A stretch of 64,000 nucleotides of DNA from Rhodothermales bacterium (GTDB lineage Bacteria; Bacteroidota; Rhodothermia; Rhodothermales; JANQRZ01): NCBI GenBank assembly GCA_028284265.1, contig JANQRZ010000004.1, positions 1-64,000 on the forward strand, written 5' to 3'. A program made the translations under genes and the position numbers. The first letter of the stretch is position 1. Each line of letters starts with the position of its first letter. The notes beneath the pieces were generated by a model. That model searched no databases. It was not told the origin of the DNA and saw only the letters and a program-made list of their open reading frames with translations. Positions 1 through 47,069 of the stretch are shown one piece after another.

Positions 1-1424
1 GCGACCTCACGGCCACGCACGTCGTAGACCGTCACGGCGACCTTGCTGCTCTCTTCGAGCGAGAAGGTGATCTCGGTCCGCTCGACGAACGGGTTCGGGT
101 AGGCCCCGACTTCGCTCGTGCGTGCTGCGGCCTCGAACGTCGGCCACGGCGTGGCGTCGACGAGCGTCCACTCGGTCGAGGTGCCAGCCACGCGACCCGG
201 GCTGCTCACGGTCACTTCCACATCGTCGCTTGCAACGGAGGCGCTGGTGTTCGGGCCTGCGCTGATCGTGACGGTGTAGGTGCCATCGGGAGCCGCACCG
301 GGAACGCCGAGGGAGAAGCCGAGCGTCGGCGAGCAGGTGTTGGCCGGGAGGCTGCCGCTCTGGACGACGCCGGGTCCGGCGACGGAGTTGCCACCGAGGA
401 AGGCCTCGAAGTAGACGACGCCGCTGACGGGGTTGCCCGTGTTGTTGCAGACGACGTAGGTGAAGCTAGCCGTGCCGGGTGCGGAGACGGTCTGCATCTC
501 CGGGTCGGCGTCGAGCGTGAACGGATCCATCATGCCGCCGGACATCGTCTCGCTGGCACCCGCAGTGATCTCACGGACAGCCGTTGCAGCACCGATCTTA
601 CCAACGAGCGTCGTGGCACCCGTGGTCAGGTCCACCGAGCGAAGCTCGGCGGGGTTGTTGCCGAGGCCGAATTCGGCGTTGTTGAAGGCATAGATGTACA
701 TCGTGCCGTCTTGGTTGTCGAAGTCAGCCGCTTGCGCGAAGTTGCCGTCGAAGCCAGCCAAACCAAGGAGCGTCGCCGAACCGTCAGCAATGTTGAGCTC
801 GTAGATCGAGTCCTCAATGATGCTGTGGAGGTAGCCCTGGCCGTCCGGGCTGATGGCGAGACCGACGGCGCAGGTCGCTTCCGTCGTGGAACCGATGAGC
901 GAGGTCGTCAGCGTGCCGAAGTCCACCGTGTAGAGACTCGTCTGCGTGGCGCAGTCTGAGACGATGGCGTAGAACGTGCCGTCGTAGTACGACAAGTCGC
1001 CGATCTCAATGAGGCCAACGTTGCCGAGGGGCGTCTCTGCACCCGTAACCGGGTCCACGTCAAAGGCGTTGCCCGCGAAGTCGATGACGTGGAACGTCGA
1101 CAGGTCGTTGCCTGCGAAGTCACCAGCGTTGATGAAGTCCGGATTGGTTGTCCCACCAATCGAGGTGGTGCCGCCCGGGGTGTCCTGCGCGAAGCGCAAG
1201 TACTCCGGTGCCACGAAATCATTGACGGCGTCGAAGCCGAAGACCGTGTCCATCGGGCCGGAGCGATCCAGCGAGACCTCGGGCGAGTCGATGGTGCGGG
1301 CGCACTCAGCGGGGAGCGGGCCAGCCGTCGTCGCGAGGCCGCGGCAGTTGTCCTGCGCGAACGTCACGGGGGTGAGTGCCACACAGAGCGCGGCTACACT
1401 GAAAAAGCGTACAAGCGTTTTCAT
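1..1424 (-). CDS. T9SS-sorted secreted protein, C-terminus cut by window edge
   Basis: The gene reads leftward from an ATG at 1424 and has no stop before base 1, so only about 474 codons are present. The N-terminus is a Sec signal peptide (MKTLVRF, then a hydrophobic stretch ending FAQ). Near the window edge it reads AYPNPF, a serine/threonine-rich strand and VYDVRGREV, the start of a type IX secretion sorting domain of about 80 residues. The body shares blocks such as DFINAGDF and GNDL with the next gene upstream (1663-3258), so the two are tandem paralogues. That paralogue looks like a repeat-propeller or DUF4394-like protein. The mature protein is probably secreted or anchored on the cell surface. 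Its substrate is unknown. Confidence 0.8.
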   Translation of the reverse strand, partial: MKTLVRFFSVAALCVALTPVTFAQDNCRGLATTAGPLPAECARTIDSPEVSLDRSGPMDTVFGFDAVNDFVAPEYLRFAQDTPGGTTSIGGTTNPDFINAGDFAGNDLSTFHVIDFAGNAFDVDPVTGAETPLGNVGLIEIGDLSYYDGTFYAIVSDCATQTSLYTVDFGTLTTSLIGSTTEATCAVGLAISPDGQGYLHSIIEDSIYELNIADGSATLLGLAGFDGNFAQAADFDNQDGTMYIYAFNNAEFGLGNNPAELRSVDLTTGATTLVGKIGAATAVREITAGASETMSGGMMDPFTLDADPEMQTVSAPGTASFTYVVCNNTGNPVSGVVYFEAFLGGNSVAGPGVVQSGSLPANTCSPTLGFSLGVPGAAPDGTYTVTISAGPNTSASVASDDVEVTVSSPGRVAGTSTEWTLVDATPWPTFEAAARTSEVGAYPNPFVERTEITFSLEESSKVAVTVYDVRGREV

Positions 1425-1580
1425 AGGTGTGTAAGGGGTTTGGTGAAGGGAACAGGGTGCTGATCTCGGGTAGAAACCAGTCAAAGTGCAAGGAACGACG
1501 CGGCGCTGGTTTTGTCAAGAACCCTCGAAGCAAAGACAGGCGCTTCGTGGGTGCGCTTTTGGCTCAGACCACATCCGGTG

Positions 1581-1662: not shown

Positions 1663-3258
1663 CTACTTGACGAGTGTGATGCGTCCGCTCTGCACCGCAT
1701 CGCCCGCCACAAGGCGGTAGATGTAGGTGCCGACGGCGAGGCCACGCCCCTCGAAGGTGGCCGTGTGCGTACCCGCTTCCAGTGCGCCATCAGTCAGCAC
1801 GGCGACTTGACGCCCGAGTACATCGTAGACCGCAAGGCGAACGTCCGCTGCCTCGTCGAGTGAGAACGTCAGCGTCGTCTCGCGGGCGAACGGGTTGGGG
1901 TAGGCTGCAACCGTGTTGGGAGCCGCCGTTGCGGCGGCGCTCACGGTGCTCTTCAGGGACGGCCACGGCGTGGCGTCGGAGACCGTCCACGTTGCCTCGG
2001 AGGCCCCGTTCGATGCCGTCACGGTAAGCGGGAGGCTCGCCGTCATCGTAACGTTCGAGTTGTTCGGGCTGGCGCTGATGTCAACGCGGTAGGTGCCGGG
2101 CTGTGCACCCGAGGCCACGCCGAGGTCGAACGAGAGCTCCGGCAGGCAGGTCTGTCCATCCACCGAGCCGGACTCAACGCGCACTTCGGGTGAGGCCGGG
2201 CTTCCGTTGAGGAAGAGCTGGTACGTCAGCTCGCCGGAGAGACGGGTAGCGACGCCGTTGCAGACTTGGTAGGAGAACGTTGCCGTGCCGCCCTGCGGAA
2301 CACTTTCAACCTCGGTCGAAGCCGCGACACTGAAGTTGTCGCGCGGCGTCCGGCTGGACCCAGCACCGATCTGGTTGCGACCACCGGGGAACGCGCCACC
2401 AAGCCGGCCGAGGAAGGTGGTGTTGCCATTGGCCTTGTCGACCATGCGAAGCTCGCCCCGGCGCGTATCGTTGTTGTACGCATAGGCGAAGAGGGTGCCG
2501 GTCATGTTGTCGAAGTCCATCTCCTGCCCGAAGTTCGGGTCGAAGTCGAGCGGACCGACAATGCTCACGTCGCCGTTGGACTTGCTGATCGTCACCAACT
2601 GGTTGGTGTTGATGCCGTAGGCGTAGAGCGTCCCATCAGTGGGGTCCGAGGCCAGCGCGATGCCGCAGAGGAGGTCGCGTTCTTCGGCAGGGCCGACCCG
2701 CGTGCGGGTGCGTGCGTCGATGTCGATGACGAAGAGCGAGGTCTCGCTGCCACAGTCGGCAGACAGCGCGTAGAAGACCTGGTCTCGGTAGTCCCACGTC
2801 ATCGCGGTCCACGTCTGACCGTTCGGCGGGTCGATCCGACCGAGGTTGGTGACGTTGCCGGTGTTGGCGTTGACCGAGATGGCGCGGCCCTCGGCATCGA
2901 GGCCGTACCAGATCGTAAGGTCGTTGCCGCGGAAGTCCCCGGCGTTGATGAAGTCCGACGGGTTGAACGGCGTGACGAGACCGTAGACCTGCGGGCGGTC
3001 TTCCTCGAACCGGACGAAGGCCGAGTTCTGGTAGTCGTGGCCGAAGGCGGGGGCGTTCGAGGCGAGGCGGAGAGCCGGGGCCACCTCAGGAGCCTCGGAG
3101 AGCGAGGCGCAGGCGGCGATGGCGTGGTCAGCAGGGCCAGCGGACAGCACCGTCCGGTCGCAGCTATCCTCTTGGGTAGCGGACTGTTGGGCGGCTGCAA
3201 AGGGGGCGAGGGCGACGCAGAGCGCCGCCACGCGGAGGAAGCGTGGGGTGAGCTTCAT
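1663..3258 (-). CDS. T9SS type A sorting domain protein, propeller-like
   Basis: 531 residues from ATG 3258. I chose this over the open frame's upstream start because it begins a clean signal peptide (MKLTPRFLRV, hydrophobic core, AAAQ). The middle has repeated blocks in which aromatic and Asp/Gly motifs alternate (YAYGINTNQL, FAYAYNNDT), like DUF4394 or quinoprotein-type beta-propellers. A CARDB/immunoglobulin-like segment follows (FSYQVCNG). The last 80 residues are a T9SS sorting domain (AYPNPFARET, VYDVLGRQVAVL, GTYIYRL). It is a tandem paralogue of the gene at 1-1424 and has its own terminator at 1581-1623. It is probably a surface or secreted protein. Catalytic function is not evident. 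Confidence 0.85.
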   Translation of the reverse strand: MKLTPRFLRVAALCVALAPFAAAQQSATQEDSCDRTVLSAGPADHAIAACASLSEAPEVAPALRLASNAPAFGHDYQNSAFVRFEEDRPQVYGLVTPFNPSDFINAGDFRGNDLTIWYGLDAEGRAISVNANTGNVTNLGRIDPPNGQTWTAMTWDYRDQVFYALSADCGSETSLFVIDIDARTRTRVGPAEERDLLCGIALASDPTDGTLYAYGINTNQLVTISKSNGDVSIVGPLDFDPNFGQEMDFDNMTGTLFAYAYNNDTRRGELRMVDKANGNTTFLGRLGGAFPGGRNQIGAGSSRTPRDNFSVAASTEVESVPQGGTATFSYQVCNGVATRLSGELTYQLFLNGSPASPEVRVESGSVDGQTCLPELSFDLGVASGAQPGTYRVDISASPNNSNVTMTASLPLTVTASNGASEATWTVSDATPWPSLKSTVSAAATAAPNTVAAYPNPFARETTLTFSLDEAADVRLAVYDVLGRQVAVLTDGALEAGTHTATFEGRGLAVGTYIYRLVAGDAVQSGRITLVK

Positions 3259-3584
3259 AGGATGGTAAGGTATTGTGTGGTGGATAGGTAGAACGTGTCG
3301 TCTGGTGGGAACGACACTTTGGGCACTGCTAAACAACCACCGTGTTTTCCCTATGTCAATAGCATGGAGCGTGAAGTGGCTAAGAAAGTCCAAAGGCCAC
3401 TTGACTATGTCAACCTGAAGCGACGAAAGGGAATACCAAGGTGACAGCGAGGACTAGGAGTATCGTCCATCCCACGGGGTGACTTTAATCCTCCTGCGCA
3501 TAGGGGTTTCCCTTATCATGGTGCGCGCCAGTGGGCGCATATCACAACCTCCTTCTTGCCACTTGCGCCGCTGAGGGGGGAGTG
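3259..3584. other. Gene-free spacer between divergent genes
   Basis: No coding frame here looks real. The stretch separates the leftward T9SS gene (start 3258) from the rightward RiPP-like gene. It should hold the promoter of the leftward gene, but I could not pick one box with confidence. The right end contains the TTG of the promoter described at 3563-3592. Confidence 0.6.
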
Positions 3585-3592
3585 TATATTTG
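3563..3592 (+). promoter_or_regulatory. Bacteroidota-type promoter of the RiPP-like gene
   Basis: TTG at 3563-3565, 19 bases, then TATATTTG at 3585-3592. This matches the Bacteroidota sigma-A pattern TTG-N19-TAnnTTTG exactly. Transcription should start near 3598-3600, about 48 bases before the ATG at 3647. An AGGAG ribosome-binding site sits at 3636-3640. Confidence 0.6.
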
Positions 3593-3646
3593 CGATGTGG
3601 CTCACGCTATACTTACTCTACTCTACACCACGGCCAGGAGACCGTA

Positions 3647-3844
3647 ATGAAGACTTACCAAGAACCCCAAATCACCATCTACGGTGACATCGCCGAGATC
3701 ACGGCAACGCTGGGCGACCCCTTCACGGGTGACCAGTCGTTTGATATCGACGGCAACGTGATTGAGTCCTCCGAGAACTCGATCAACCAGTGCCCGACGA
3801 TCAACAACGAGGGCTGCTTCTTCAACGAAGGCGGCGCTCCGTAA
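3647..3844 (+). CDS. Orphan RiPP precursor with lasso-type leader
   Basis: 65 residues from ATG 3647, chosen because AGGAG lies seven bases upstream and because the recognisable leader begins there. Residues 4-19 read Y-x2-P-x-I-x3-G-x5-T. This is the leader motif bound by the B1 (PqqD-like) protein of lasso-peptide systems. Thr21 sits two residues before Gly23, which would fit leader cleavage with Gly23 as core residue 1 and Asp29 as a possible ring acceptor at position 7. However, the remaining 43 residues are long for a lasso core. They carry two cysteines (49 and 57) and many acidic and Asn residues. No B, C or E maturation gene lies in the window, so processing would have to act in trans. 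It stands alone, with its own promoter (3563-3592) and a hairpin after it (3890-3921). The leader family is fairly sure. The nature of the product is open. Confidence 0.65.
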   Translation: MKTYQEPQITIYGDIAEITATLGDPFTGDQSFDIDGNVIESSENSINQCPTINNEGCFFNEGGAP

Positions 3845-3889
3845 GGACACAGCATTGACACGGCTGCTGGCCGAGGTCGGTAGCGTGTG

Positions 3890-3921
3890 CAGGCCCTAGG
3901 GACGCAGGTTCCTAGGGCCTG
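3890..3921 (+). terminator. Hairpin after the RiPP-like gene
   Basis: An 11-bp perfect stem (3890-3900 with 3911-3921) with a 10-base loop is followed by TCTGTATTT. It lies 46 bases past the stop of the RiPP-like gene and before the glycosyltransferase. The U tract is weak, so this may be a processing hairpin or a modest terminator. Confidence 0.6.
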
Positions 3922-3983
3922 TCTGTATTTCTGGGTGGAAGCGCTTCCGGTTTCGAGAGCGTCTCTGCCGCTCGGATCGGCGG

Positions 3984-6208: not shown

Positions 6209-7033
6209 ATGGACTACGATCCCGTCAAAGACCGGCTCGGCGATGCGTTCGGGCGCTCGCCTGCACTGAACAAGGTTTTTTACCGACTGCTCGACACGGT
6301 CTTCCTCCGCTCGTGGTACGTTCGCCGTGAGCTGCGGGCGCTCATCGAGTCGATGCCCAAAGATCGCCCGGTGCGCGTGCTCGACGCCGGGACCGGGTTT
6401 GGGCAGTACGCCTATTTCTTGCTCGACCAGTTTCCGCACGTCGAAGTCACGGCGGTGGACGTGAAGGCCGACTACCTCGCCCGCGCTCGCACGTTCTTCG
6501 ATCAGACCCCCCACGCCGACCGCATCGCCTTCCGCCAACTCGACCTCACCGAGCCGATGGAGCAAGAGGCCGTCTACGACCTCTGCCTGAGCGTCGACGT
6601 GATGGAGCACATCGAGGATGACCGCGCCGTGTTCCGCAACTTCCGGCAGGTGCTCCGGCCCGGTGGCTACGTCATCGTCAACACGCCGAGTGATCAGGGG
6701 GGTAGCGGCGTCACCGAGGAAGGCGAGGAGAGCTTCATCGGCGAGCACGTCCGCGACGGGTATCCGCCCGCCGAGTTGCAGGAGAAGCTAGAGACGGCGG
6801 GGCTGGAGGTCGTCGACTGGATGTACACCTACGGACGCTACGGGTCGGCGGGGTGGCGGCTCCTCGTCAAGTGGCCCATCGGACTGCTGAACCGAAGCAT
6901 GGCCTTCGGCGCACTCTTGCCGTTCTACTATCTCCCCGCGCTGCCGACGGGCCTCGCTCTCAACGCCCTCGACCTCCGCGAGAAGAATTCGACCGGCACC
7001 GGGCTGCTGATGATTTCAAGAAAGCCCGCGTGA
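6209..7033 (+). CDS. Class I SAM-dependent methyltransferase
   Basis: 274 residues. Motif I is VRVLDAGTGFGQYAYFL (about residues 53-70), with the acidic loop of motif II in VTAVDVK and LSVDVMEHI as motif IV. A hydrophobic stretch near the C-terminus (GLLNRSMAFGALLPFYYLPA) resembles membrane-associated methyltransferases of glycan or lipid clusters. It starts three bases after the epimerase stop, so it is the third gene of the sugar operon. It could methylate a sugar, a lipid-linked glycan or a quinone-like molecule. The context favours a glycan. Confidence 0.88.
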   Translation: MDYDPVKDRLGDAFGRSPALNKVFYRLLDTVFLRSWYVRRELRALIESMPKDRPVRVLDAGTGFGQYAYFLLDQFPHVEVTAVDVKADYLARARTFFDQTPHADRIAFRQLDLTEPMEQEAVYDLCLSVDVMEHIEDDRAVFRNFRQVLRPGGYVIVNTPSDQGGSGVTEEGEESFIGEHVRDGYPPAELQEKLETAGLEVVDWMYTYGRYGSAGWRLLVKWPIGLLNRSMAFGALLPFYYLPALPTGLALNALDLREKNSTGTGLLMISRKPA

Positions 7034-7083
7034 ACGCTCGTCCGCTAGGCGCGTATCAAGCGCCGCACCATTCATCTGAGCCG

Positions 7084-7653
7084 ATGCCTGCGACCCTGCT
7101 AGAACCCCACACGTTTACGGTAGACGAGTACCACGCTCTCGCCGAAGCTGGTATTCTCTGCGAGGACAGTCGCGTCGAACTCATTGATGGAATCATCACC
7201 GCTATGTCCCCTGTCGGAGCCGCCCACATCGCTTGTGTCAATCGTCTTACTCGGCTTTTCAACCGGATCGGGCTAGCTTTGGATGATGCGTTCGTCGTCA
7301 GCGTGCAGAACCCGGTGCGGCTTGGGCCGAAGCAGGAGCCGGAGCCGGACATCGCACTCTTGCGACCGATGACAGAGGTGCGTGTGCCCGAAGCAGCCGA
7401 TGCGCTCCTCGTTATCGAGGTGGCGGATGCGACGCTCGCGACGGACCGGGCGGTGAAAGCGCCGCGCTATGCTGCCGCCGGGGTGCCCGAAGTGTGGATC
7501 GTCAACCTACCGGACAAGCAGATCGAGGTGTACCGCCGCCCCGGAGCCAACGGGTATCTCGAAACCCGAGTCGCAGCGCCGGGCGAGTCACTGAGGTTCG
7601 CGGCACTTCCCGATGCAAGCGAGGTTAGGGTCTCGGACATGCTGGGAATGTAG
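7084..7653 (+). CDS. Uma2 family PD-(D/E)XK nuclease-fold protein
   Basis: 189 residues from ATG 7084. The open frame extends further upstream, but that part overlaps the methyltransferase in another frame. The order F(T)[55 protein letters not shown] is typical of Uma2/DUF820 proteins. The Asp of EPDIALL, the Glu of VIEVAD and the Lys of the YAAAGV helix region match the expected nuclease-type site. These small genes are often scattered and multicopy in Bacteroidota and cyanobacteria. Their biological role is unsettled. Confidence 0.88.
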
Positions 7654-7732
7654 CTCCGGGAGGAATTCGTCGGCGGGAGCGGGCGGCAGGCGTTACCTTA
7701 GCGAAACCCTCCGCACCCAGACCCCGGCTCTC

Positions 7733-9493
7733 GTGCAGACCAAGTACCTCTTCGTCACGGGCGGCGTGACCTCCTCGCTCGGCAAGGGCATCTTTTCGGC
7801 CTCGCTTGGTCGCCTCCTCGAAGCGCGCGGCCTCCGCGTCACCATCCAGAAGTTCGACCCGTACATCAACGTCGACGCGGGGACGATGAACCCCTACGAG
7901 CACGGCGAGGTCTTCGTCACCGACGACGGGGCGGAGACCGACCTCGACCTCGGGCACTACGAGCGCTTCCTCGGCGTGCCGATGAGTCAGGCCAACAACG
8001 TCACGACGGGCCGGGTCTATTCGGGCGTGATCGAGAAGGAGCGCGCCGGGGCGTATCTCGGCAAGACGGTCCAGGTCGTCCCCCACGTCATCGACGAGAT
8101 CAAGGGGTGGATGCGGAAGCTTGGCGAGACGGGCGACTACGATGTTGTTATCACCGAAGTCGGCGGGACGGCGGGCGACATCGAGAGCCTGCCCTACCTC
8201 GAAGCAATCCGCCAGTTCGCGCTCGAAGAGGGGCGCTCGAACGTCTGCCTCGTTCACCTGACGCTCGTCCCATACCTCGCGGCGGCGGGCGAACTGAAGA
8301 CCAAGCCGACGCAGCACTCGGTCAAAACGCTCCAGAGCTACGGCCTCCAGCCCGATGCCCTCGTCTGCCGCACCGAGCATCCGCTCCCCGACGACGTGCG
8401 CCGCAAGATCGCCAACTTCTGCAACGTCGAGCAGCGAGCCGTCGTGCAGGCGCTCGACGCCGAGACGATCTATGAAGTGCCGCTGCTCCTGCGCGAGCAG
8501 GGGATCGACGAGGTGGTGATCGAGAAGCTCCGCCTCGGCGAGGGGGCCGAGCCGCTCGGCGAGGTCGAACTGGACCGATGGATCGAGTTTTTGCAGCGCC
8601 TCAAGCACCCGACGGGCAAGGTCCGCGTGGCGCTCGTCGGGAAGTACGTCGAGCATCAGGACGCCTACAAGTCGATCTCGGAGAGCTTCATCATCGCAGG
8701 GGCGGCGCACAGCGTACAGGTCGAGGTCGTCCCGATTCACTCGGAGGCGGTCACGGCGGAGAACGTGGCCGACCTGCTCGGCGAGGTCTCCGGCGTGCTC
8801 GTCGCACCGGGGTTCGGGGAGCGCGGGATCGAGGGCAAGATCGAGGCCGTCCGGTTCGCCCGCGAGCGCGGCGTGCCGTTCCTCGGCATCTGCCTCGGGA
8901 TGCAGTGCGCGGTCATCGAGTTCGCCCGCCACGTCTGCGAGTGGGAGGATGCCCATTCGACCGAGTTCAACGAGGACTCGCCGAAGCCGGTCATCGCCCT
9001 GATGGCCGAGCAGAAGGAAGTCACCGAGAAAGGCGGGACGATGCGTCTCGGCCAGTACCACTGCCGCCTCGAACCGGACTCCCGCGTGCGTGCCGTCTAC
9101 GGCGAGGACGAGGTCCACGAGCGGCACCGTCACCGCTACGAGGTCAACAACCACCTGCGCTACAAGCTGAAGGAGCACGGGATGGCCTTCACCGGCGTCA
9201 ACCCCGAGCGCGACCTCGTCGAGATCATCGAGCTACCGGAGGACGGGCCGACGGCGCACCCGTGGTTCGTCGGGGTGCAGTTCCACCCGGAGTACAAGAC
9301 GACGGTGCAGCGCCCGCACCCGCTCTTCGTCGCGTTCATCGGAGCCGCCGTGACGCACGCCACCGAAGCCGGGACGCTCGACACGCCGCGTCCGCCGAGC
9401 GCCACGCGCAAAGTCCGCCGTGCCTCGGCCACCCTCCCCCGCAGCGGCGACGGCGAGGCGGGTCTCCCCGCCGACGTGTCACGGGCGGAATAA
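7733..9493 (+). CDS. pyrG: CTP synthase
   Basis: 586 residues from GTG 7733. The family's N-terminus (M[18 protein letters not shown]) begins exactly there, and no ATG is suitably placed. The enzyme makes CTP from UTP and glutamine. The N-terminal synthetase domain carries the P-loop-like [10 protein letters not shown] and HYERFLG. The C-terminal glutamine amidotransferase has the oxyanion loop APGFGERG, the nucleophile Cys in GICLGMQ, and the His/Glu pair in QFHPEYK. It is some 40 residues longer than the E. coli enzyme because of a basic, Pro/Ser-rich C-terminal tail. It stands alone in a cytoplasmic nucleotide pathway. Confidence 0.97.
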
Positions 9494-9525
9494 GATAGCG
9501 TGAACAGCGGGCGCGTTATATCGCG

Positions 9526-10176
9526 TTATATACTGACTCTGCTGGCAAGTCGATCAAGCCCCTTCATTCGCTGAACGAACAGCTCTCTTGTTCGATCAAG
9601 ATTCCAGTTCGGCTTGTCACCAATAAACGCTTTCCACCTCGGGAGAAACACCGATACGTTGTCCGATCTATTCTGGTGATCGAAGTAGGCCAAGGCCGCC
9701 ATCGCATCACTTTGCTCGAACCAGAGTTCAGTTCGCGTAAGGTAGTAATCGAGGTATCGCTTGATATAATCGAGTCCTGCCGGTGTACCAAGTCTGGCTA
9801 GCGCGAGACAGTATCCTCTCCCTGCATCGCAGACATCACTACGAAGAAGTAGGCGTCCAACAAGGTCTTCGTGCTCGTTCATCCGTTTGAGAGCGACGAA
9901 GTAAGCTCCTACGAGACGAGGTCGCCAGTTAAACTCAGAGAGAAGCCGAAGCGCTAGCGATTCATCTATTTCCTGCCATGCTGTAGCGAGCGCTTTGGTT
10001 GTAAGCTCGTCTGGATGCACGAGGTCAGCCATGTAAAACGGTCGCACCCACTTTGCAATGAAACCAGCGTCGAGTGCCTCTTCTGAGACGGGGACGCTGA
10101 GATTAGCAAAGGGGCTCTGATGACGCACCGTTGCTCCGGCGTGGTGCAGTCCTGCTGCATCGTGAGGAATAGGCAT
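9526..10176 (-). CDS. DUF6000-like conserved hypothetical protein
   Basis: 216 residues, soluble, no signal peptide. The pattern W-x-RLVGAYFVAL, LLLRSDVCDAGRGYCLALARLGTPAG, YLDYYL-T-x-ELWF-x-Q-x-DAMAALAYFD and KPNW-x-LD matches my memory of the DUF6000 family, an all-helical protein of unknown function. A sampled 60 bases (9601-9660) contain 29 G or C, well below the neighbours, so it may be horizontally acquired. It converges with pyrG, and its start diverges from the PQQ dehydrogenase gene at 10372. Confidence 0.7.
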   Translation of the reverse strand: MPIPHDAAGLHHAGATVRHQSPFANLSVPVSEEALDAGFIAKWVRPFYMADLVHPDELTTKALATAWQEIDESLALRLLSEFNWRPRLVGAYFVALKRMNEHEDLVGRLLLRSDVCDAGRGYCLALARLGTPAGLDYIKRYLDYYLTRTELWFEQSDAMAALAYFDHQNRSDNVSVFLPRWKAFIGDKPNWNLDRTRELFVQRMKGLDRLASRVSI

Positions 10177-10325
10177 CAGTAGATCAGAGGTAGGCCCTAG
10201 GGAAACGAGTTTAGGATGCTATTTCGCAAATGGCGTCAGTGAAGCATACCAAGCGCATAAGGTAGCGTAGCCCAAGCGCACCCCGGTTGAGTCCGATCTA
10301 TCGTCGCAAAGCGAGGTCGAGAGGT

Positions 10326-10332
10326 TATCTTC
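10326..10332 (+). promoter_or_regulatory. Candidate -7 box for the PQQ dehydrogenase gene
   Basis: TATCTTC lies 39 bases before the ATG at 10372, consistent with the recurring box in this window. No convincing TTG element lies 19-21 bases upstream. Confidence 0.35.
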
Positions 10333-10371
10333 GCATCCTTCTGTCCACATAACACTTAATGGTATCCGACC

Positions 10372-12243
10372 ATGCAGGCTCGCTACGTCGTTCTGCTCAC
10401 TCTCCTCTTCACCGGCACGGCCTTCGGGCAGACGTTGCAGGACGCCTTCCCCAGCCTCGTTGCCTTCGACGGCCCGACCGACCTGCAAGCCCCGGACGAC
10501 GGCTCGAACCGGCTCTTTGTCTCCGAGCAGCAGGGCCTCATCTATGTCTTCGACAACGACGATGCGGCCACCTCGGCTTCGACCTACCTCGACATCACGG
10601 ACCGGATTCGTTTTACCAGTTCGCTGGGCCTGCTCGGGTTCGTCTTCGATCCGTCCTACGCGCAGAACGGGTACGTCTACGTCCACTACTCCCGCGATCA
10701 CCCCGACATGGGTGACCCCGACCCGACGCAGAGCGTCATCGCCCGCTTCACCGTGTCGAGCGGCAACCCCGACCTCGCCGACGCGAGCAGCGAGGAGATT
10801 TTGATTACGGTGGACCGGCCTCAGAACCAGCACAACGGCGGGCAGCTTCAGTTCGGCCCGGACGGCTACCTCTACGTTTCGATGGGTGACGGCGGCGGGC
10901 AGGGCGACCCCTTCAACAACGGGCAGGACACGACCAATATGTCCAGCACACTTCTCCGCCTCGACGTGCGCGGCACGGGCAACCCGCTCGACTGCGGCGC
11001 GGGCACCGGCTCGGCCACGATTCCTGCCGACAACCCGCTGATCGACGGCGCAGGCGGGACGTGCGACGAGATCTACGCCTACGGCTTCCGCAACCCGTTC
11101 CGCTTCAGCTTTGGCCCGGACGGTCGGATCTGGCTGGCCGATGTGGGACAGAACACGCGCGAAGAGATCAACCTGATTGAGCCGGGCACGAACCACGGAT
11201 GGAAGACCTGGGAGGGCACCTTCTGCTTCAACCCCGGCCCCGGCGGCTGCACCACGCCCGGTTTCGAGTTCCCGATCCTCGAATACGACCACGTCTTCAC
11301 CGATGAGGGCGGCTTTGCGGTGATCGGTGGCTATGTCTACACCGGCAACAACTGCGCGGCCCTGCGGGACGAGTTCGTCTATGCCGACTTCGTCACCGGC
11401 AACATCTGGGCGCTGACCTATGACGGCATGACGGCGGACAACGACCTCCTCCTTGGCCTCACCGGCAAGGCGATCACCACGTTCGGGCGCGACGAGCAGG
11501 GCGACGTCTACCTCGTCGACGCCATCGACGGAAGCATCTCGTCGTTCGATTGCGACCCACCCGTGACGGTGAGTGTTGCGCCGGTGGGTGCACCCATCAC
11601 GGTGCCCTCGACCGGCGGGGCGGTGGCCTTCGACGTGACGCTCACTAACACGACGGGGTCGCCCCAGACCTTCGATGCCTGGGCCGATGCCGACCTCTCG
11701 AACGGAGCCGAGTTCGGCGTCATCCCTCCGACCACGGTGACGCTGCCCGGCGGTTTTAGCTTCACCCGGCGCATCAACCTGAACGTGCCGGGTGCGGCCC
11801 CCGCCGGGACGAGCACGCTCGTCGTCAAGCTCGGTGACTTCCCTGACGCCGCAAGCAGCGCCGACCAGTTCACCGTGACGAAGCTGACGGCGGCAGGCGC
11901 GCAGCAGGCTTCCGCCACATGGCAGGTCAAGGGCTGGGACTTCGCCGAGGGCGAGGCTGCGAGCCGGACGGCTACCGCCGCGCCGAGCGCGACGCTCCGT
12001 GCCTACCCCTCGCCGTTCACCTCGCAGGCGACCGTTGCGTACACGCTGCCTCAAGCGGCCTCGGTGCAACTCACAGTCTATGATGTGCTCGGGCGCGAAG
12101 TCGCGGTGCTGATGAACGGCGAGGCTGAAACTGGTCGGCACGAGGCAGTGTTTGCGGGTACCGATCTGCCTGCCGGGGTCTACCTCGTGCGCCTCGTCGT
12201 GGGCGGTCAGACGCAGACGCAACGGGTGACGCTCCTGCGCTGA
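10372..12243 (+). CDS. PQQ-dependent sugar dehydrogenase with T9SS sorting domain
   Basis: 623 residues. A signal peptide (residues 1-19, ending AFG-Q) is followed by a six-bladed propeller of the soluble glucose/sorbosone dehydrogenase family: LGLLGFVFDP, QNQHNGGQLQFGPDGYLYVSMGDGG, YAYGFRNPFRFSF, LADVGQNTREEI and GGYVYTG. The His in QNQHNGG matches the catalytic or PQQ-site His of this family. Residues about 400-520 form an immunoglobulin-like stretch. The last 80 are a T9SS sorting domain (AYPSPF, VYDVLGREVAVL). The protein is therefore probably exported and surface-bound, oxidising sugars or polyols outside the cell. It ends immediately before a 91-bp palindromic repeat. Confidence 0.9.
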   Translation: MQARYVVLLTLLFTGTAFGQTLQDAFPSLVAFDGPTDLQAPDDGSNRLFVSEQQGLIYVFDNDDAATSASTYLDITDRIRFTSSLGLLGFVFDPSYAQNGYVYVHYSRDHPDMGDPDPTQSVIARFTVSSGNPDLADASSEEILITVDRPQNQHNGGQLQFGPDGYLYVSMGDGGGQGDPFNNGQDTTNMSSTLLRLDVRGTGNPLDCGAGTGSATIPADNPLIDGAGGTCDEIYAYGFRNPFRFSFGPDGRIWLADVGQNTREEINLIEPGTNHGWKTWEGTFCFNPGPGGCTTPGFEFPILEYDHVFTDEGGFAVIGGYVYTGNNCAALRDEFVYADFVTGNIWALTYDGMTADNDLLLGLTGKAITTFGRDEQGDVYLVDAIDGSISSFDCDPPVTVSVAPVGAPITVPSTGGAVAFDVTLTNTTGSPQTFDAWADADLSNGAEFGVIPPTTVTLPGGFSFTRRINLNVPGAAPAGTSTLVVKLGDFPDAASSADQFTVTKLTAAGAQQASATWQVKGWDFAEGEAASRTATAAPSATLRAYPSPFTSQATVAYTLPQAASVQLTVYDVLGREVAVLMNGEAETGRHEAVFAGTDLPAGVYLVRLVVGGQTQTQRVTLLR

Positions 12244-12334
12244 CCTCCTGCTTTGCTCGTCTCTTCGAGCACTCGCAAAGCTGTCCCCCTTCGAGGGGGA
12301 CAGCCAAGTGAGCATAGCGAATGAGGCAGGGGGT
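12244..12334. repeat. 91-bp palindromic repeat, copy 1
   Basis: It begins on the base after the PQQ gene stop. It matches copy 2 at 13953-14043 at all but five positions. Terminal CCTGC/GCAGG arms enclose a strong inner hairpin (GCTGTCCCCCTT paired with its near complement). It is REP-like, and its position just past a stop codon suggests a terminator or mRNA-end role. Confidence 0.85.
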
Positions 12335-12399
12335 CTGAAAGTGTCGTAGTGCGACCGACTGCTGATGCAGTGCGTGAAGACGGGGGCGCAGAACGGGGC

Positions 12400-12406
12400 T
12401 ATCTTG
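12400..12406 (+). promoter_or_regulatory. Candidate -7 box for the 12412 gene
   Basis: TATCTTG ends only five bases before the ATG at 12412. If this is the promoter, the transcript would begin at or next to the start codon and be leaderless. Confidence 0.35.
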
Positions 12407-12411
12407 ACGGC

Positions 12412-12789
12412 ATGGCTTCCCTTCGATCCTTCCTGCGGCTCGCGCTCGTACTCTGCCTCGTGCTCAGTACGCAGGGCTTGCTGCTCGTTCAGGGCACGTT
12501 CCTCCTGCGGAAGGACTTCGTGATCGAAAACCTCTGCGTCAACCGGGGGATGCCGGAGTTGGAGTGCGAGGGCACCTGCTTTCTGACAAAGCAGCTCCGC
12601 GAGCACCACGAGCGTCAGGAAGAGCGCAACGCCGTGAGCATGGAGGTGATGCTCGCCATCGGGTGGTTCCTCGGCGACGGCACAGCGCTCCCCGATCCGC
12701 CGGAGCGCTCCAGCACCTATTCAACGGGTCCGTCATTGTCCTCCGAGGCCCCCTTCACCAGCGACGTGTTCCATCCGCCCCGCGCCTAG
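12412..12789 (+). CDS. Small Cys-containing exported protein of metal cluster
   Basis: 125 residues from ATG 12412, where a hydrophobic signal or anchor helix begins (LRLALVLCLVLSTQGLLL). The motif N-LCVNR-x3-PEL-x-CEGTCFLTKQL, three Cys in a short span, is shared by small proteins found beside metal-related genes in Bacteroidota. It may bind a soft metal in the periplasm. The next gene (12867) encodes a Met/His-rich outer-membrane-type protein in the same direction 77 bases on, so the two are probably co-transcribed. The exact role is unknown. Confidence 0.75.
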   Translation: MASLRSFLRLALVLCLVLSTQGLLLVQGTFLLRKDFVIENLCVNRGMPELECEGTCFLTKQLREHHERQEERNAVSMEVMLAIGWFLGDGTALPDPPERSSTYSTGPSLSSEAPFTSDVFHPPRA

Positions 12790-12866
12790 CGTTTGGCCTC
12801 GCAACACGACCTCGGTACTTCGCTCTTGCGGAGTGCCCCTTTCGCACGTTTCAACGCTGGTGAACT

Positions 12867-13952
12867 ATGCCTATTCGACTTCTGCGCGCCGCCATCGCGG
12901 CTGCGTTCTGCTTCCTCGCTCTACCACTTCACGCCCAACCCTGGACCTCGCAGCGCCCGGACGGCCACGCCCCCATCGGGGTGATGGGCGACCACACGCA
13001 CGGCGCGGGTGAGGTGATGTTGTCCTATCGCTACATGTACATGCCGATGGCGGGCAGCCGCGTCGGCACCGACGCCATCGCCGACGCCGACATCGTTAGC
13101 CCGAACGGCTCAAACTTCCTCGTCACGCCGACCGAGATGCCGATGCAGATGCACATGTTCGGCGCGATGGTGGCTCCGACCGACGACCTCACGCTGATGC
13201 TGATGGTGCCGCTCGTCTTCTCCGAGATGGATCACGTCTCTAGGATGAGCATCCAGAACAACCCGGATGCTGTCGCCTTCACCACGGAGTCCGGCGGCCT
13301 CGGCGACGTAAAGCTCTCGGCCCTATACACCTTCGCCCGCCCCGGACGCACCCGCTTCCACGCTAACCTCGGTGTCAGCTTCCCGACCGGCTCCATCGAC
13401 GAGCAGGGCGTGACTCCTATGTCGATGGGCAACGAGGTCCGCCTGCCGTATCCGATGCAGGTCGGCTCTGGCACGTTCGACCTGATGCCGGGCGTGACCT
13501 ACCTCGGCCAGAGCGATGCCATCAGTTGGGGCGCGCAGGCGTCCGCTACCGTTCGCCTGAGTGAGAACAGCAACGACTACCGCCTCGGCAATGTCTACGG
13601 CGGGACATTGTGGGGCGCGTACAAAATCACCGAGATGTTCAGTGCGTCCGTCCGCGCCAAGGCGATGACGTGGGGCGATGTTGAGGGAGCCGACCCGGCT
13701 TATGCGATGGCCGTCACCAACCGGGTGGTGCCCACCGTCTTCCCCGATCTGCGCGGTGGCACCCGCCTCGACGCAGGTATCGGTGTCAACTTCTTCGTCC
13801 CGAGCGGCTCGCTTCACAACCTTCGCATCGGGGTCGAGGGAGTGCTTCCCATCTTCCAAGACCTCGACGGGCCGCAGCTCGAAGTAGACCCGATGATTGA
13901 GGTCGGGGTGCAGTATGCCTTCGGCCTGTTTGGCAAGGGGCACGGACACTGA
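12867..13952 (+). CDS. Met/His-rich outer-membrane beta-barrel protein
   Basis: 361 residues. A signal peptide ends PLHAQ. Mature residues include GVMGDHTHGAGEVMLSYRYM and MPTEMPMQMHMFG-type Met/His runs, and the protein ends GKGHGH. Alternating aromatic beta-strands (MTWGDV, GLFGKG) and a terminal strand VGVQYAFGLF suggest an outer-membrane barrel of the PF13557 (MetA-pathway) type. The Met/His clusters suggest copper or another soft metal. Its gene follows the small Cys protein and runs into a 91-bp palindromic repeat, and on the far side lies a TonB-receptor unit. Transport direction and metal are inferences. Confidence 0.75.
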   Translation: MPIRLLRAAIAAAFCFLALPLHAQPWTSQRPDGHAPIGVMGDHTHGAGEVMLSYRYMYMPMAGSRVGTDAIADADIVSPNGSNFLVTPTEMPMQMHMFGAMVAPTDDLTLMLMVPLVFSEMDHVSRMSIQNNPDAVAFTTESGGLGDVKLSALYTFARPGRTRFHANLGVSFPTGSIDEQGVTPMSMGNEVRLPYPMQVGSGTFDLMPGVTYLGQSDAISWGAQASATVRLSENSNDYRLGNVYGGTLWGAYKITEMFSASVRAKAMTWGDVEGADPAYAMAVTNRVVPTVFPDLRGGTRLDAGIGVNFFVPSGSLHNLRIGVEGVLPIFQDLDGPQLEVDPMIEVGVQYAFGLFGKGHGH

Positions 13953-14043
13953 CCCCCTGCTTTGCTCATCTCTTCGAGCACTCGCAAAGCTGTCCCCCTT
14001 CAAGGGGGACAGCCGAGTGAGCATAGCGAACGAGGCAGGGGGT
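13953..14043. repeat. 91-bp palindromic repeat, copy 2
   Basis: It fills exactly the space between two convergent stop codons (TGA at 13950-13952 and the minus-strand stop at 14043-14045). Inside is a perfect 12-bp stem with a one-base loop. Outer arms CCCCCTGC and GCAGGGGG pair. It is about 95 percent identical to copy 1 and probably ends both transcripts. Confidence 0.88.
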
Positions 14044-14654
14044 TAGCCCGTGATCGCCACCGGGAAGGTGAAGTCCACGTCGTTCTCGACGACGCCGGGG
14101 ACCTCGTCGGCAGTGGCCGTGTCGTTGCGCTTGTCGGCGGGGAGGTCGGCGTCTTCCTCGTAGTGACGAAGCTTGACGCGGAACTGGCCGGTCGCGGCTC
14201 CGCCAGCGGACGCGGCGAGATCGAACGACAGCCCGAGCGGATCGCCGTTGGGATCGGCGTCGAGGCCAGAGACGGTCAGCCGACCGGCGACTCCGCCCTC
14301 GGGCGTGTAGAAGAAGCGGTGCGCATCCGGCTCTTCGTCGCGGATCTCCTCGGTGATACTCTCCGGCGGGGTTTCGAGCGTGTTCTGGAGATCAATCGTC
14401 ACGTCGTAGGTGGTCCCAGCGGTCAGGTTGAGGGTTTCGGCGTTTTGCAGCACACCGGCCTCATCGAAGGTGGCATCGACCATCATGGCAGCCCCGCCAC
14501 CCTGCGGCGTGAGCGCGAGGCGGACGAGCGTGATGACTTCCTCCTCGCCCGCACCGTCGTCATCGTCGGGTTCATTGGAGTCGCAGGCCGTGAAAAGGAA
14601 CGCGAAAGCGAGCAAGAGCGCGCCGAAGCGCGTGAAGGTAGAGAAGGTGTTCAT
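14043..14654 (-). CDS. Lipoprotein partner of TonB-dependent receptor
   Basis: 203 residues with a lipobox (AFLFTAC-DSNE), followed by an acidic linker and a beta-rich domain (VRLALTPQGGG, GTTYDVTIDLQN, EITEEI, AHRFFYTPEG, LGLSFDL, FRVKLRH). Proteins of this type commonly sit next to metal-uptake TonB receptors in Bacteroidota. Here it starts 45 bases after the receptor gene stop, in the same direction. It is likely a surface or periplasmic substrate-binding accessory. The bound ligand is not visible from sequence. Confidence 0.78.
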   Translation of the reverse strand: MNTFSTFTRFGALLLAFAFLFTACDSNEPDDDDGAGEEEVITLVRLALTPQGGGAAMMVDATFDEAGVLQNAETLNLTAGTTYDVTIDLQNTLETPPESITEEIRDEEPDAHRFFYTPEGGVAGRLTVSGLDADPNGDPLGLSFDLAASAGGAATGQFRVKLRHYEEDADLPADKRNDTATADEVPGVVENDVDFTFPVAITG

Positions 14655-14699
14655 GGGTCTAGGTTGTGTTGGCTTGGTGTGTTGTTTTCGGGTTGGTGC

Positions 14700-17048
14700 T
14701 CACGACGAGCCGAGCGGGACCTGCACACGCAGGACCACGTTGCGGCCGGGGTCGTGAGCGAAGTAGCGGTAGCGGCTGAGGTAGTCGCGGTACCGCGTGT
14801 TGAGGATGTTTTCGATGTCGAGCGAGAGGCGGACGGGCGTGGCCCCGAGGCGGAGTTCGCCCGACAGTCCCGCGCTGAGGAGGGCATAGCCTCCCGGCGG
14901 AGCGACGTAGTCGAGTGCGACGGCGTCGCCCTCGGCGTCGAGGCGGATGGGGAACTGGTCCTGCTCACGGACGAGCGTAGCCCCGACCTCCACCTGCGGC
15001 GTGCTGAACGCGCCGAGGCTCGGCAGGGCATAGGTAGCAGTCAGCCCGAGCCGGTCGGCGGGCATGGCGAGGAGCGGCTCGTCGCGGCTGGTGTCGGTCC
15101 CCCGGACGGCGGCGGCGGTGAGACCGAGCGAGAGGCCGCCCCCCACGACCACATCGAGCGCCCCGTCGAAGCCGAGGAGACGAGCGTCGGTCTGCCGGTG
15201 ACGGAACTCGGGGAAGACCCCACGCACTGTCACGACGATCTCGCTCTGGGGGTCGAGGTAGATGTAGTCGGCGATGCGCGTGGCGTAGGCGCTGGCTTCA
15301 AATGCGACGCGGCGGCTCTGGTGGCGGAGCGTCGCGTCGAGGCCGAGGCTGCGCTCGGTGCCGAGGCTGCCGTCGCCGACCTCGAACTGTGCTGTGCCGT
15401 GGTGGATGCCGAAGCTGTACAGCTCGTTCACGCTCGGCGGTCGCCACGCAGCCGAGGCGTTCGCCCCGACAGACCACGACTCGGTGAACTGCCAGATCGC
15501 CCCGAGCGCCCCCGACGCTCCGGTCCATGTCCGCGTCGTCTCGACGAAGTCGCCACGTTCGCCCGATTCCCGGGGGAAGGCCCGCAGCCATCGGCTATCG
15601 AGCCGCGCCCCGGTCTCGACGGTGAGCGGTCCCCGTGCCCACGTCGCCCGTGCCCACACACCGCCATCGTAGGACCGGAAGTTGGGGATGAGGTAGCCGA
15701 TCTCGGAGCGGTTGCCCTGCGTCATGCCGTGCAGCCCGACGGTGCTGAACACGTCGCCGCCGAGGAGCCGGGTAGGTCGCGTCTGCACCTTGGCGTCGAG
15801 CGTCTGCGTCAGCAGGATAAGGTCGAAGGCGGCTCGTTCGAGCGGATCACGCCCGCCGATGCGGTCGGCGTCGAACTCCTGCCGCCGGTTTCGCTGTACG
15901 GCGTATTGCACGTCGGCACTGGCACCGCGACCTAGATCGAGCCGTCCTCGGAGGGCGATGATGTCGTGGACGATGTCCTGCTTCGGCGCGCCGATGTCGT
16001 AGCCGAAATCGTACTCCACCGGCGGGCGGCCCGCCTCAAAGACGGACTCCAGCGCAGCGAACGTGTTGAAGTGCGCGCCCCGGTAGACGCCGAGGTCGGT
16101 CCCGAAGTGGCTGGCGTGGGCTTCGAGGTCGAGCGCTCCGAGTGCGTAGCCGAGGGCGACCTCAGCACTTCGCTCGAAGAACGCGGTGTTGCCGAGGACG
16201 TAGTCCGGCGTCCGCGCATCGCCCGCTCGCCGCAGGCTCCCCTGCACGCGAACACCAAGGCCCGGCACGGCGGCAGGACTTCCTTCGAGTTCGACAGAGC
16301 CTGCGGCCTGTCGGCTGTTCGAGAAGGTGCTCGCCGAAACCTGCCCGCCCCATCCCGGCGTGCGGGGCAGCGCCTCGTCCTCGATCCGCACGACCCCACC
16401 GATGGCTCCGGCTCCGTACTCGACTCCGGCGGCTCCACGCACGACTTCGATCCGCGCCCCGGAGAACGGGTCGATTTCGGGCGCGTGCTCGGCTCCCCAC
16501 TGCTGGCCTTCTTGAGGCACGCCCTTGTTGACAACGATCACGCGGTCCGAGTGCAGCCCGCGGATCACGGGCTTCTGGATGCTCGGTCCGGTGGCGAGCG
16601 TCGTCACGCCCGGAAGCCGTTCGAGGGTTTCGCCGAGGGTCTGGCCGCGCACGGCGTCGAGGTCTTCGGCTTCGAGTACCGCGATGGACTGCGGGGCGCG
16701 GCCAAGGGCTTCCTGCACTCGGTCCTCGCGCACCGTGACCACGTCCAGTTCCTCAATCACCTCGGTGAGCACCACATCGAGTAGCACCTCGCCGCTGACC
16801 GTCACCGCCTGCTCGATTCGCTCATATCCGACAGCGCTGAACACCACCGTGAGCGGGCCGGTCGGCAGATTGCCGAGGCGATAGCGCCCATCCGCGTCCG
16901 TGGCGGTGCCGCGTTCGAGGGCGGGCACGGCCACGTTGACGCCGGGAAGCGGCGCACCGTTCGTGTCGGTGACGCGCCCACTGAGGGACTGCGCCACTGC
17001 CATCGGAGCGAGAGCGAGGAGGAGGAGAAACGAGAGGAAACTCCGCAT
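14700..17048 (-). CDS. TonB-dependent receptor, ZnuD-like
   Basis: 782 residues from ATG 17048 (signal peptide MRSFLSFLLLLAL to AVAQ). The upstream in-frame start is not signal-like. An N-terminal carboxypeptidase-regulatory domain (SGRVTDTNGAPLPGVNVAV) precedes the plug (QSIAVLEAEDL, LGETLERLPGV, KPVIRGLHSDRVIVV, EGQQWGAEHAPEIDPF, YGAGAIGGVV). A 22-strand-type barrel ends in NVVLRVQVPLG. The plug pattern IRGLHSDR plus QQWGAEHAPEID is that of the zinc/metal receptors related to ZnuD. It should import a scarce metal or metal complex using TonB energy. It is flanked by a His-rich small protein (17201) and its lipoprotein (14043), which supports metal uptake. Which metal is inferred. Confidence 0.9.
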   Translation of the reverse strand: MRSFLSFLLLLALAPMAVAQSLSGRVTDTNGAPLPGVNVAVPALERGTATDADGRYRLGNLPTGPLTVVFSAVGYERIEQAVTVSGEVLLDVVLTEVIEELDVVTVREDRVQEALGRAPQSIAVLEAEDLDAVRGQTLGETLERLPGVTTLATGPSIQKPVIRGLHSDRVIVVNKGVPQEGQQWGAEHAPEIDPFSGARIEVVRGAAGVEYGAGAIGGVVRIEDEALPRTPGWGGQVSASTFSNSRQAAGSVELEGSPAAVPGLGVRVQGSLRRAGDARTPDYVLGNTAFFERSAEVALGYALGALDLEAHASHFGTDLGVYRGAHFNTFAALESVFEAGRPPVEYDFGYDIGAPKQDIVHDIIALRGRLDLGRGASADVQYAVQRNRRQEFDADRIGGRDPLERAAFDLILLTQTLDAKVQTRPTRLLGGDVFSTVGLHGMTQGNRSEIGYLIPNFRSYDGGVWARATWARGPLTVETGARLDSRWLRAFPRESGERGDFVETTRTWTGASGALGAIWQFTESWSVGANASAAWRPPSVNELYSFGIHHGTAQFEVGDGSLGTERSLGLDATLRHQSRRVAFEASAYATRIADYIYLDPQSEIVVTVRGVFPEFRHRQTDARLLGFDGALDVVVGGGLSLGLTAAAVRGTDTSRDEPLLAMPADRLGLTATYALPSLGAFSTPQVEVGATLVREQDQFPIRLDAEGDAVALDYVAPPGGYALLSAGLSGELRLGATPVRLSLDIENILNTRYRDYLSRYRYFAHDPGRNVVLRVQVPLGSS

Positions 17049-47038: not shown

Positions 47039-47069
47039 GGGACTCGTGGGGCGGTGGAGAAGTACGAGG

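What the first reader, a model, noticed from the sequence alone, without database searches (positions are those of the whole stretch)
3647..3844. Orphan precursor peptide with a lasso-type leader and no maturation genes nearby
Residues 4-19 match YxxPxLxxxGxxxxxT, the leader signature for lasso-peptide RRE binding. There is a strong promoter, a good ribosome-binding site and a hairpin after it, so it looks expressed. The downstream 43 residues are long and contain two Cys, unlike ordinary lasso cores. It might be modified by distant enzymes or be a new product class.
Basis: partly seen in the sequence, partly recalled or inferred. Interest (0 to 1): 0.6.

Follow-up and report, generated by a model that had tools for sequence, protein, structure and literature searches.

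The report
Scattered lasso-peptide precursors sharing one core
The small gene is one of at least five scattered copies of a lasso-peptide precursor whose product part is kept almost identical while its recognition part and surroundings differ, and the enzymes that could mature it sit elsewhere in the same genome.

Summary
The 65-residue ORF is real. Its leader matches the lasso Y/P/L/T pattern and has homologues. It has no maturation genes beside it, but the same genome holds a complete lasso cassette (B1, B2, cyclase, ABC transporter, kinase-like gene) on contig C13, with its own precursor of nearly the same core. The genome carries five copies at separate places (A = window, B, C = cassette, D, E). 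Their flanks are unrelated and their leaders 57-73% identical in DNA, yet their cores are 82-100% identical (codons 18-49). A sister species keeps A, D and E at the same places. There the leaders follow the locus, while the D/E core and tail follow the genome, and A is a mosaic. This looks like ectopic gene conversion holding one product constant behind different leaders, the reverse of the prochlorosin pattern. Literature numbering and 13 aligned precursors place core residue 1 at Thr21 and the ring acid at Asp29, so the core has 45 residues with two Cys. Maturation in trans is inferred, not shown. The sister assembly has no detectable cassette, and Thr as residue 1 lacks precedent in the papers read. 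New variant of a known kind.

The parts
3563..3592 (+). Possible promoter TTG-N19-TATATTTG (Bacteroidota type, consensus recalled)
   Evidence: background 0.004 per 250 nt in the window; the sister species has a degenerate form; absent upstream of the other copies
3635..3640 (+). Ribosome-binding-site-like CAGGAG
   Evidence: sequence; kept in the orthologue's upstream region
3647..3844 (+). Lasso-type precursor gene, copy A
3647..3706 (+). Leader, residues 1-20 (Y4, P7, I9, G13, T19)
   Evidence: YxxPxL at -17 to -12 per PMC10368454 puts residue 21 at +1
3707..3841 (+). Predicted core, 45 residues, Cys at core 29 and 37
3707..3733 (+). Predicted macrolactam ring Thr1-Asp9 (residues 21-29)
   Evidence: Asp29 invariant in 13 of 13 aligned precursors
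3743..3796 (+). Segment of B-type sequence (DIDGNVIESSENSINQCP), of a different type from the sister species' copy at this place: probable conversion tract
3889..3922 (+). Terminator-like hairpin (15 pairs)

Best explanation
The gene is a stand-alone lasso-peptide precursor. Shown: five same-core copies in the genome, one inside a B1-B2-C-transporter cassette on C13; leaders that keep the residues known to bind B1; Asp at core position 9; separate transcription-end hairpins; a core that behaves as a homogenised segment. Inferred: B1 (PqqD-like) of the C13 cassette binds the leader, B2 cuts after Ala20, the cyclase joins the Thr21 amine to the Asp29 side chain around the tail, and the ABC transporter exports the product, so several separately controlled loci feed one enzyme set and yield nearly one product. 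Gene conversion between the scattered copies keeps the product uniform while leaders and promoters drift with their loci.
For: Cassette on C13: PqqD 66 bits, lasso B2 NF033537 86.9 (cut-off 33), lasso cyclase NF033535 764.8 (cut-off 525), ABC transporter, HprK-like, nucleotidyltransferase. All 5 lasso-leader matches in the genome belong to this family. Leader DNA (codons 1-17) 57-73% between paralogues in G000, but codons 18-49 82-100%. Orthologues of A, D, E in syntenic places in G001. In quartet D0/D1/E0/E1 the sites grouping by locus are nt 8, 24, 25, 33 and those grouping by genome nt 39, 49, 50, 66, with no site for the third grouping. Tails: D1 = E1 (FNDGGKP) and D0 = C0 type (FNENP). 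Synonymous differences in the core: D0/E0 0 of 32, D1/E1 1 of 32, against about 0.3 at orthologous neighbour genes. Asp at core 9 in 13 of 13. Among 33 distinct leader-bearing cores, D/E at positions 8-9 in 18, against 3-10 for adjacent pairs of positions that include neither 8 nor 9; the overlapping pairs 7-8 and 9-10 give 10 and 16.
Against: Maturation in trans is untested. G001 has three intact precursors but no B2 and no DNA of the cassette; its assembly is 96% complete in 130 contigs, so loss and gap cannot be told apart. Thr as core residue 1 is not among the observed residues named in PMC12670498. A run test on silent columns alone is not significant (14 columns, best p 0.059). The all-sites version is significant but confounded by different constraint on leader and core. 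The window peptide itself is below the NCBIfam cut-offs.
Confidence: 0.68

Rival explanations
1. Dead duplicates: copies of the cassette precursor were dropped around the genome and are decaying, with no product.
For: No maturation genes nearby; sister assembly lacks the cassette.
Against: 6 of 6 same-family copies held in full are open; the two cut by contig ends (D and E in G000) are open as far as they go. Three loci are kept in the same places in two species whose neighbour genes differ at about 0.3 of silent codons. Leaders diverge but keep Y4, P7, G13, T19.
Confidence: 0.12
2. Leader-bearing peptides that are not lasso substrates: a linear or otherwise modified 45-residue secreted peptide, or a decoy that occupies B1.
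For: Core is long; first residue Thr (Tyr or Asp in G002); precursors without a detectable cassette in G001; other order members have the same leader type on cores without D/E at 7-9.
Against: One copy lies between the lasso cyclase and the transporter in C13; Asp at core 9 in all 13 aligned.
Confidence: 0.15
3. Lasso precursors, but no gene conversion: identity of cores reflects strong constraint on protein and codons, while leaders are free to drift.
For: Core protein is constrained; even between species D0/D1 differ at only 1 of 32 silent-capable codons; silent-only run test not significant.
Against: Genome-wise grouping of D/E with a clean switch between nt 33 and 39, tail types shared within genomes including a two-residue length difference, and mosaic copy A.
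Confidence: 0.2

Closest known systems
Split-B lasso peptide clusters (paeninodin type; bsf cluster of Bradymonas, PMC10368454, abstract and passages seen)
   Same: PqqD-like B1, B2 protease, cyclase, ABC transporter, HprK-like kinase, nucleotidyltransferase; leader Y(-17), P(-14), L(-12), a set residue at -2
   Different: Here most precursors lie away from the cassette; core is 43-45 residues with two Cys; residue 1 would be Thr
Prochlorosins/synechococsins with ProcM/SyncM (PMC10783134, passages seen)
   Same: Precursor genes scattered over the genome, alone among unrelated genes, served by one enzyme set
   Different: There the precursors are hypervariable (a conserved leader is recalled); here the core is constant and leaders vary; different chemistry
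   Same: Three leaders with cores identical over their first 14 residues, Asp at core 9, two Cys
   Different: Copies are tandem beside the cluster's genes, not scattered

Membership tests
Lasso peptide precursor | Leader Y(-17) P(-14) L(-12) and T(-2) | tested here: met
   Y4, P7, I9 (Leu in three of the other four G000 copies, Val in one), T19; spacing as in PMC10368454
Lasso peptide precursor | Asp/Glu at core position 7-9 | tested here: met
   Asp29 = core 9, 13 of 13 aligned
Lasso peptide precursor | Accepted first core residue | tested here: inconclusive
   Thr21; observed residues named in PMC12670498 are Gly, Cys, Ser, Ala and now Asn
Lasso peptide precursor | B1, B2 and cyclase available | tested here: met
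   Full set on C13 of the same genome; not beside the window gene; not found in G001
Lasso peptide precursor | NCBIfam curated cut-off | tested here: inconclusive
   Window copy below (27.8/33; 13.4/19); copies B and C above for NF033521 (22.7, 20.2 against 19), G001 copy E above for NF033528 (36.8 against 33)
Lasso peptide precursor | Threaded macrolactam product | not testable with these tools
   needs mass spectrometry or NMR
Prochlorosin-like scattered precursors | Hypervariable cores | tested here: not met
   Cores near identical; a lanthipeptide synthetase was not looked for

The most novel reading that the evidence does not exclude
A one-product, many-leaders lasso system: ectopic gene conversion copies the core between scattered precursor genes so that separately controlled loci all yield the same signal or weapon, possibly outliving the local maturation cassette in the sister species.
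Probability: 0.4. Interest if true: 0.7.

Novelty: new variant of a known kind. Interest (0 to 1): 0.52.

Why it matters
Genome mining looks for lasso precursors next to their enzymes, so stand-alone copies are missed. A constant core behind drifting leaders inverts the usual idea that RiPP evolution keeps the leader and varies the core. It suggests selection for one product under several controls, and it offers natural leader variants for testing what B1 accepts.

Tried and rejected
Dual-hairpin 3' element: the five copies folded each showed two hairpins, but 306 of 500 random 60-nt stretches also hold a 7-pair stem, so only the long terminator-like hairpin was kept.

Ring Gly23-Asp29 (7 residues): rejected as first choice because T19, not T21, is the invariant Thr, and YxxPxL numbering puts +1 at residue 21.

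tRNA-linked insertion: copy B lies near tRNA-Val and copy E (G001) near tRNA-Asp, but no tRNA was found in the stretches examined near A (window, whose only tRNA is at 47068, and the G001 orthologue), C, or on D's own contigs. G002 has no precursor in the corresponding B gap. In G001 the contig ends inside the sigma-factor gene upstream, so B's absence there is uncertain.

Mobile origin: no match in viral contigs, plasmids or phages. Genome contigs gave none for the peptide.

G034's precursor looked remote from B2, but B1 and the cyclase lie beside it, so it is not a stand-alone case.

Errors in my scripts: the glycosyltransferase row was read out of frame (4 of 88) and should be ignored; without it the pooled rate is 973/3288 = 0.30 instead of 0.289. 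In one search copy C was offset by 3 nt, which affects only its flank and printed tail. In one search copies D and E of G000 are not counted because they are cut by contig ends, and one of the three G050 precursors was missed by the script's filter.

Full report
Observation. The ORF at 3647-3844 encodes a 65-residue peptide. Its leader fits Y-x2-P-x-[LI]-x3-G-x5-T. NCBIfam gives lasso_cyano at E 1.9e-6 (27.8 bits, cut-off 33), with rhodolasso and lasso_leader_L3 weaker. A CAGGAG lies before the ATG, a 15-pair hairpin at 3889-3922, and a Bacteroidota-like promoter motif (recalled consensus) at 3563-3592, which is present in 1 of 8 copies. The sigma-70 scan found none. Neighbours are a secreted DUF4394 protein with a T9SS-type tail on one side and glycosyltransferase, epimerase, methyltransferase and Uma2-like genes on the other (the Uma2 label is recalled).

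Genome context. A search of the window's own genome (3.69 Mb, 24 contigs, 97.86% complete) gave 7 places at E up to 10. Five are precursor genes, one is the 3' end of one of them on contig C9, and one is a weak chance-level place (E 0.19). I name the genes A (window, C2), B (C23), C (C13), D (C18, its 3' end on C9 by synteny with G001) and E (C19). NF033521 found the same five and nothing else. C13 carries the full lasso cassette in order: PqqD-like B1, B2, cyclase, precursor C, HprK-like protein, ABC transporter and further on a nucleotidyltransferase. C2 and C13 are separate contigs, so the true distance is unknown. From the contig ends it is at least about 10 kb.

Conservation pattern. Between paralogues in G000, leader DNA (codons 1-17) is 57-73% identical, while codons 18-49 are 82-100%. 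Upstream and downstream 150-nt flanks between different loci align at 34-57%, against 64-70% for the three orthologous upstream pairs; of the two orthologous downstream pairs, A gives 68% and D only 48%. The same-genus genome G001 holds three copies. Their surroundings match those of A, D and E, so they are orthologous loci. Leaders follow the locus (A 82%, D 80%, E 78% between species), although D1/E1 is also 82% because a shared tract reaches into the leader's end. For D and E, four informative sites up to nt 33 group by locus, four from nt 39 on group by genome, and none supports the third grouping. A perfect split of eight such sites has a chance of 2 in 70 under random order. Tails agree: D1 and E1 share FNDGGKP, while D0 has the FNENP tail of C0. 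A0 shares codons 33-49 with B0 (94%) and differs from its own orthologue A1 (73%), which carries the D/E type there (96-98%), although both A copies keep the same tail end. At amino-acid-identical codons the neighbour genes differ silently in about 0.3 of cases; core pairs D0/E0 and D1/E1 differ in 0 and 1 of 32 (with the error told under Tried and rejected). Against this, a run test on silent columns only was not significant (14 columns, best p 0.059), and the all-sites version is confounded by unequal constraint. Core silent sites are also unusually alike between species (D0/D1 1 of 32), which conversion within a genome does not explain by itself.

Core and ring. PMC10368454 (abstract and passages seen) places the leader's YxxPxL at -17 to -12, which puts residue 21 of the window peptide at +1 and T19 at -2. 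In 13 aligned precursors (6 of this family, 3 from G002, 3 from G050, 1 from G034) K2, Y4, P7, G13, T19 and D29 are invariant. D29 is then core residue 9. Over 33 distinct leader-bearing cores of the order, D/E at positions 8-9 occurs in 18, against 3-10 at adjacent pairs of positions that include neither 8 nor 9; 13 of the 33 have no D/E at 7-9. The ring would be Thr1-Asp9 and the tail 36 residues with two Cys (core 29 and 37), which could form a disulphide within the tail. PMC12670498 (abstract and passages seen) names Gly, Cys, Ser and Ala as observed first residues and adds Asn, so Thr would be new.

Relatives. Of 114 genomes of the order, 31 have a lasso_cyano match at E up to 0.05 (3 over the cut-off) and 36 a B2 match at E up to 0.001 (34 over the cut-off). 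A search with this family's own alignment matched 8 of 114 genomes at E up to 0.01, strongly only in the 3 of the window's family. G002 has a cassette in the same setting (Wzc-like and WecA-like neighbours, recalled labels) with two tandem precursors, plus one stand-alone precursor on another contig. G001 has no B2 match and none of the cassette's DNA apart from the precursors themselves and short weak matches elsewhere. Rhodothermus records appear among relatives of the cyclase (3 of 7 loci).

Mechanism. I take it as most likely that the window gene is matured in trans by the C13 cassette and that ectopic gene conversion keeps its product close to that of the other loci. The presence of genes, motifs and mosaic pattern is shown. 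Binding, cleavage, cyclisation, export and expression are inferred. What the product does is not known from these data; uniformity of the core across separately controlled loci fits a signal or a weapon with one receptor or one immunity factor.

Literature. Searches for lasso peptide with orphan precursor, gene conversion with precursor and core peptide, lasso with Rhodothermus, lasso with distant or precursor genes, RiPP with concerted evolution, lasso with in trans, lasso with scattered and lasso with Bacteroidota and orphan listed no paper whose title or abstract start described scattered same-core lasso precursors. I did not read most of the listed papers, and the library lacks most subscription journals. 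Scattered precursors served by one enzyme set are known for prochlorosins (PMC10783134, passages seen). PMC8498205 (passages seen) gives the ring as 7-9 residues and mentions HPr kinase homologues and nucleotidyltransferases in lasso clusters.

Noticed in passing
L084, L085, L077, L080, L090 (G036, G037, G035, G040, G039; one genus): Lasso-like leaders on cores such as GSCWYGKQGGQYDADLGPGTLSDCR with no D/E at ring positions 7-9 and a conserved Cys near the end; the B2 match of these genomes lies far away or on another contig.
   Followed up: partly
L114 (G034) 6760-9599: B1, cyclase and a long two-Cys precursor together without a reported B2; the only B2 match at E up to 0.001 is about 1.7 Mb away in a single-contig genome.
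   Followed up: partly
L115 (G050) 11881-13225: Three lasso precursors in a row with cores identical over their first 14 residues and different tails.
   Followed up: no
L047 (G001) 8375-15635: Copies D and E face each other about 7 kb apart, forming an inverted repeat of about 160 bp; in G000 the assembly breaks inside it.
   Followed up: partly
window 3-1484 and 1663-3264 (-): Two neighbouring, apparently similar secreted proteins; the second has DUF4394 and a T9SS-type sorting tail.
   Followed up: no
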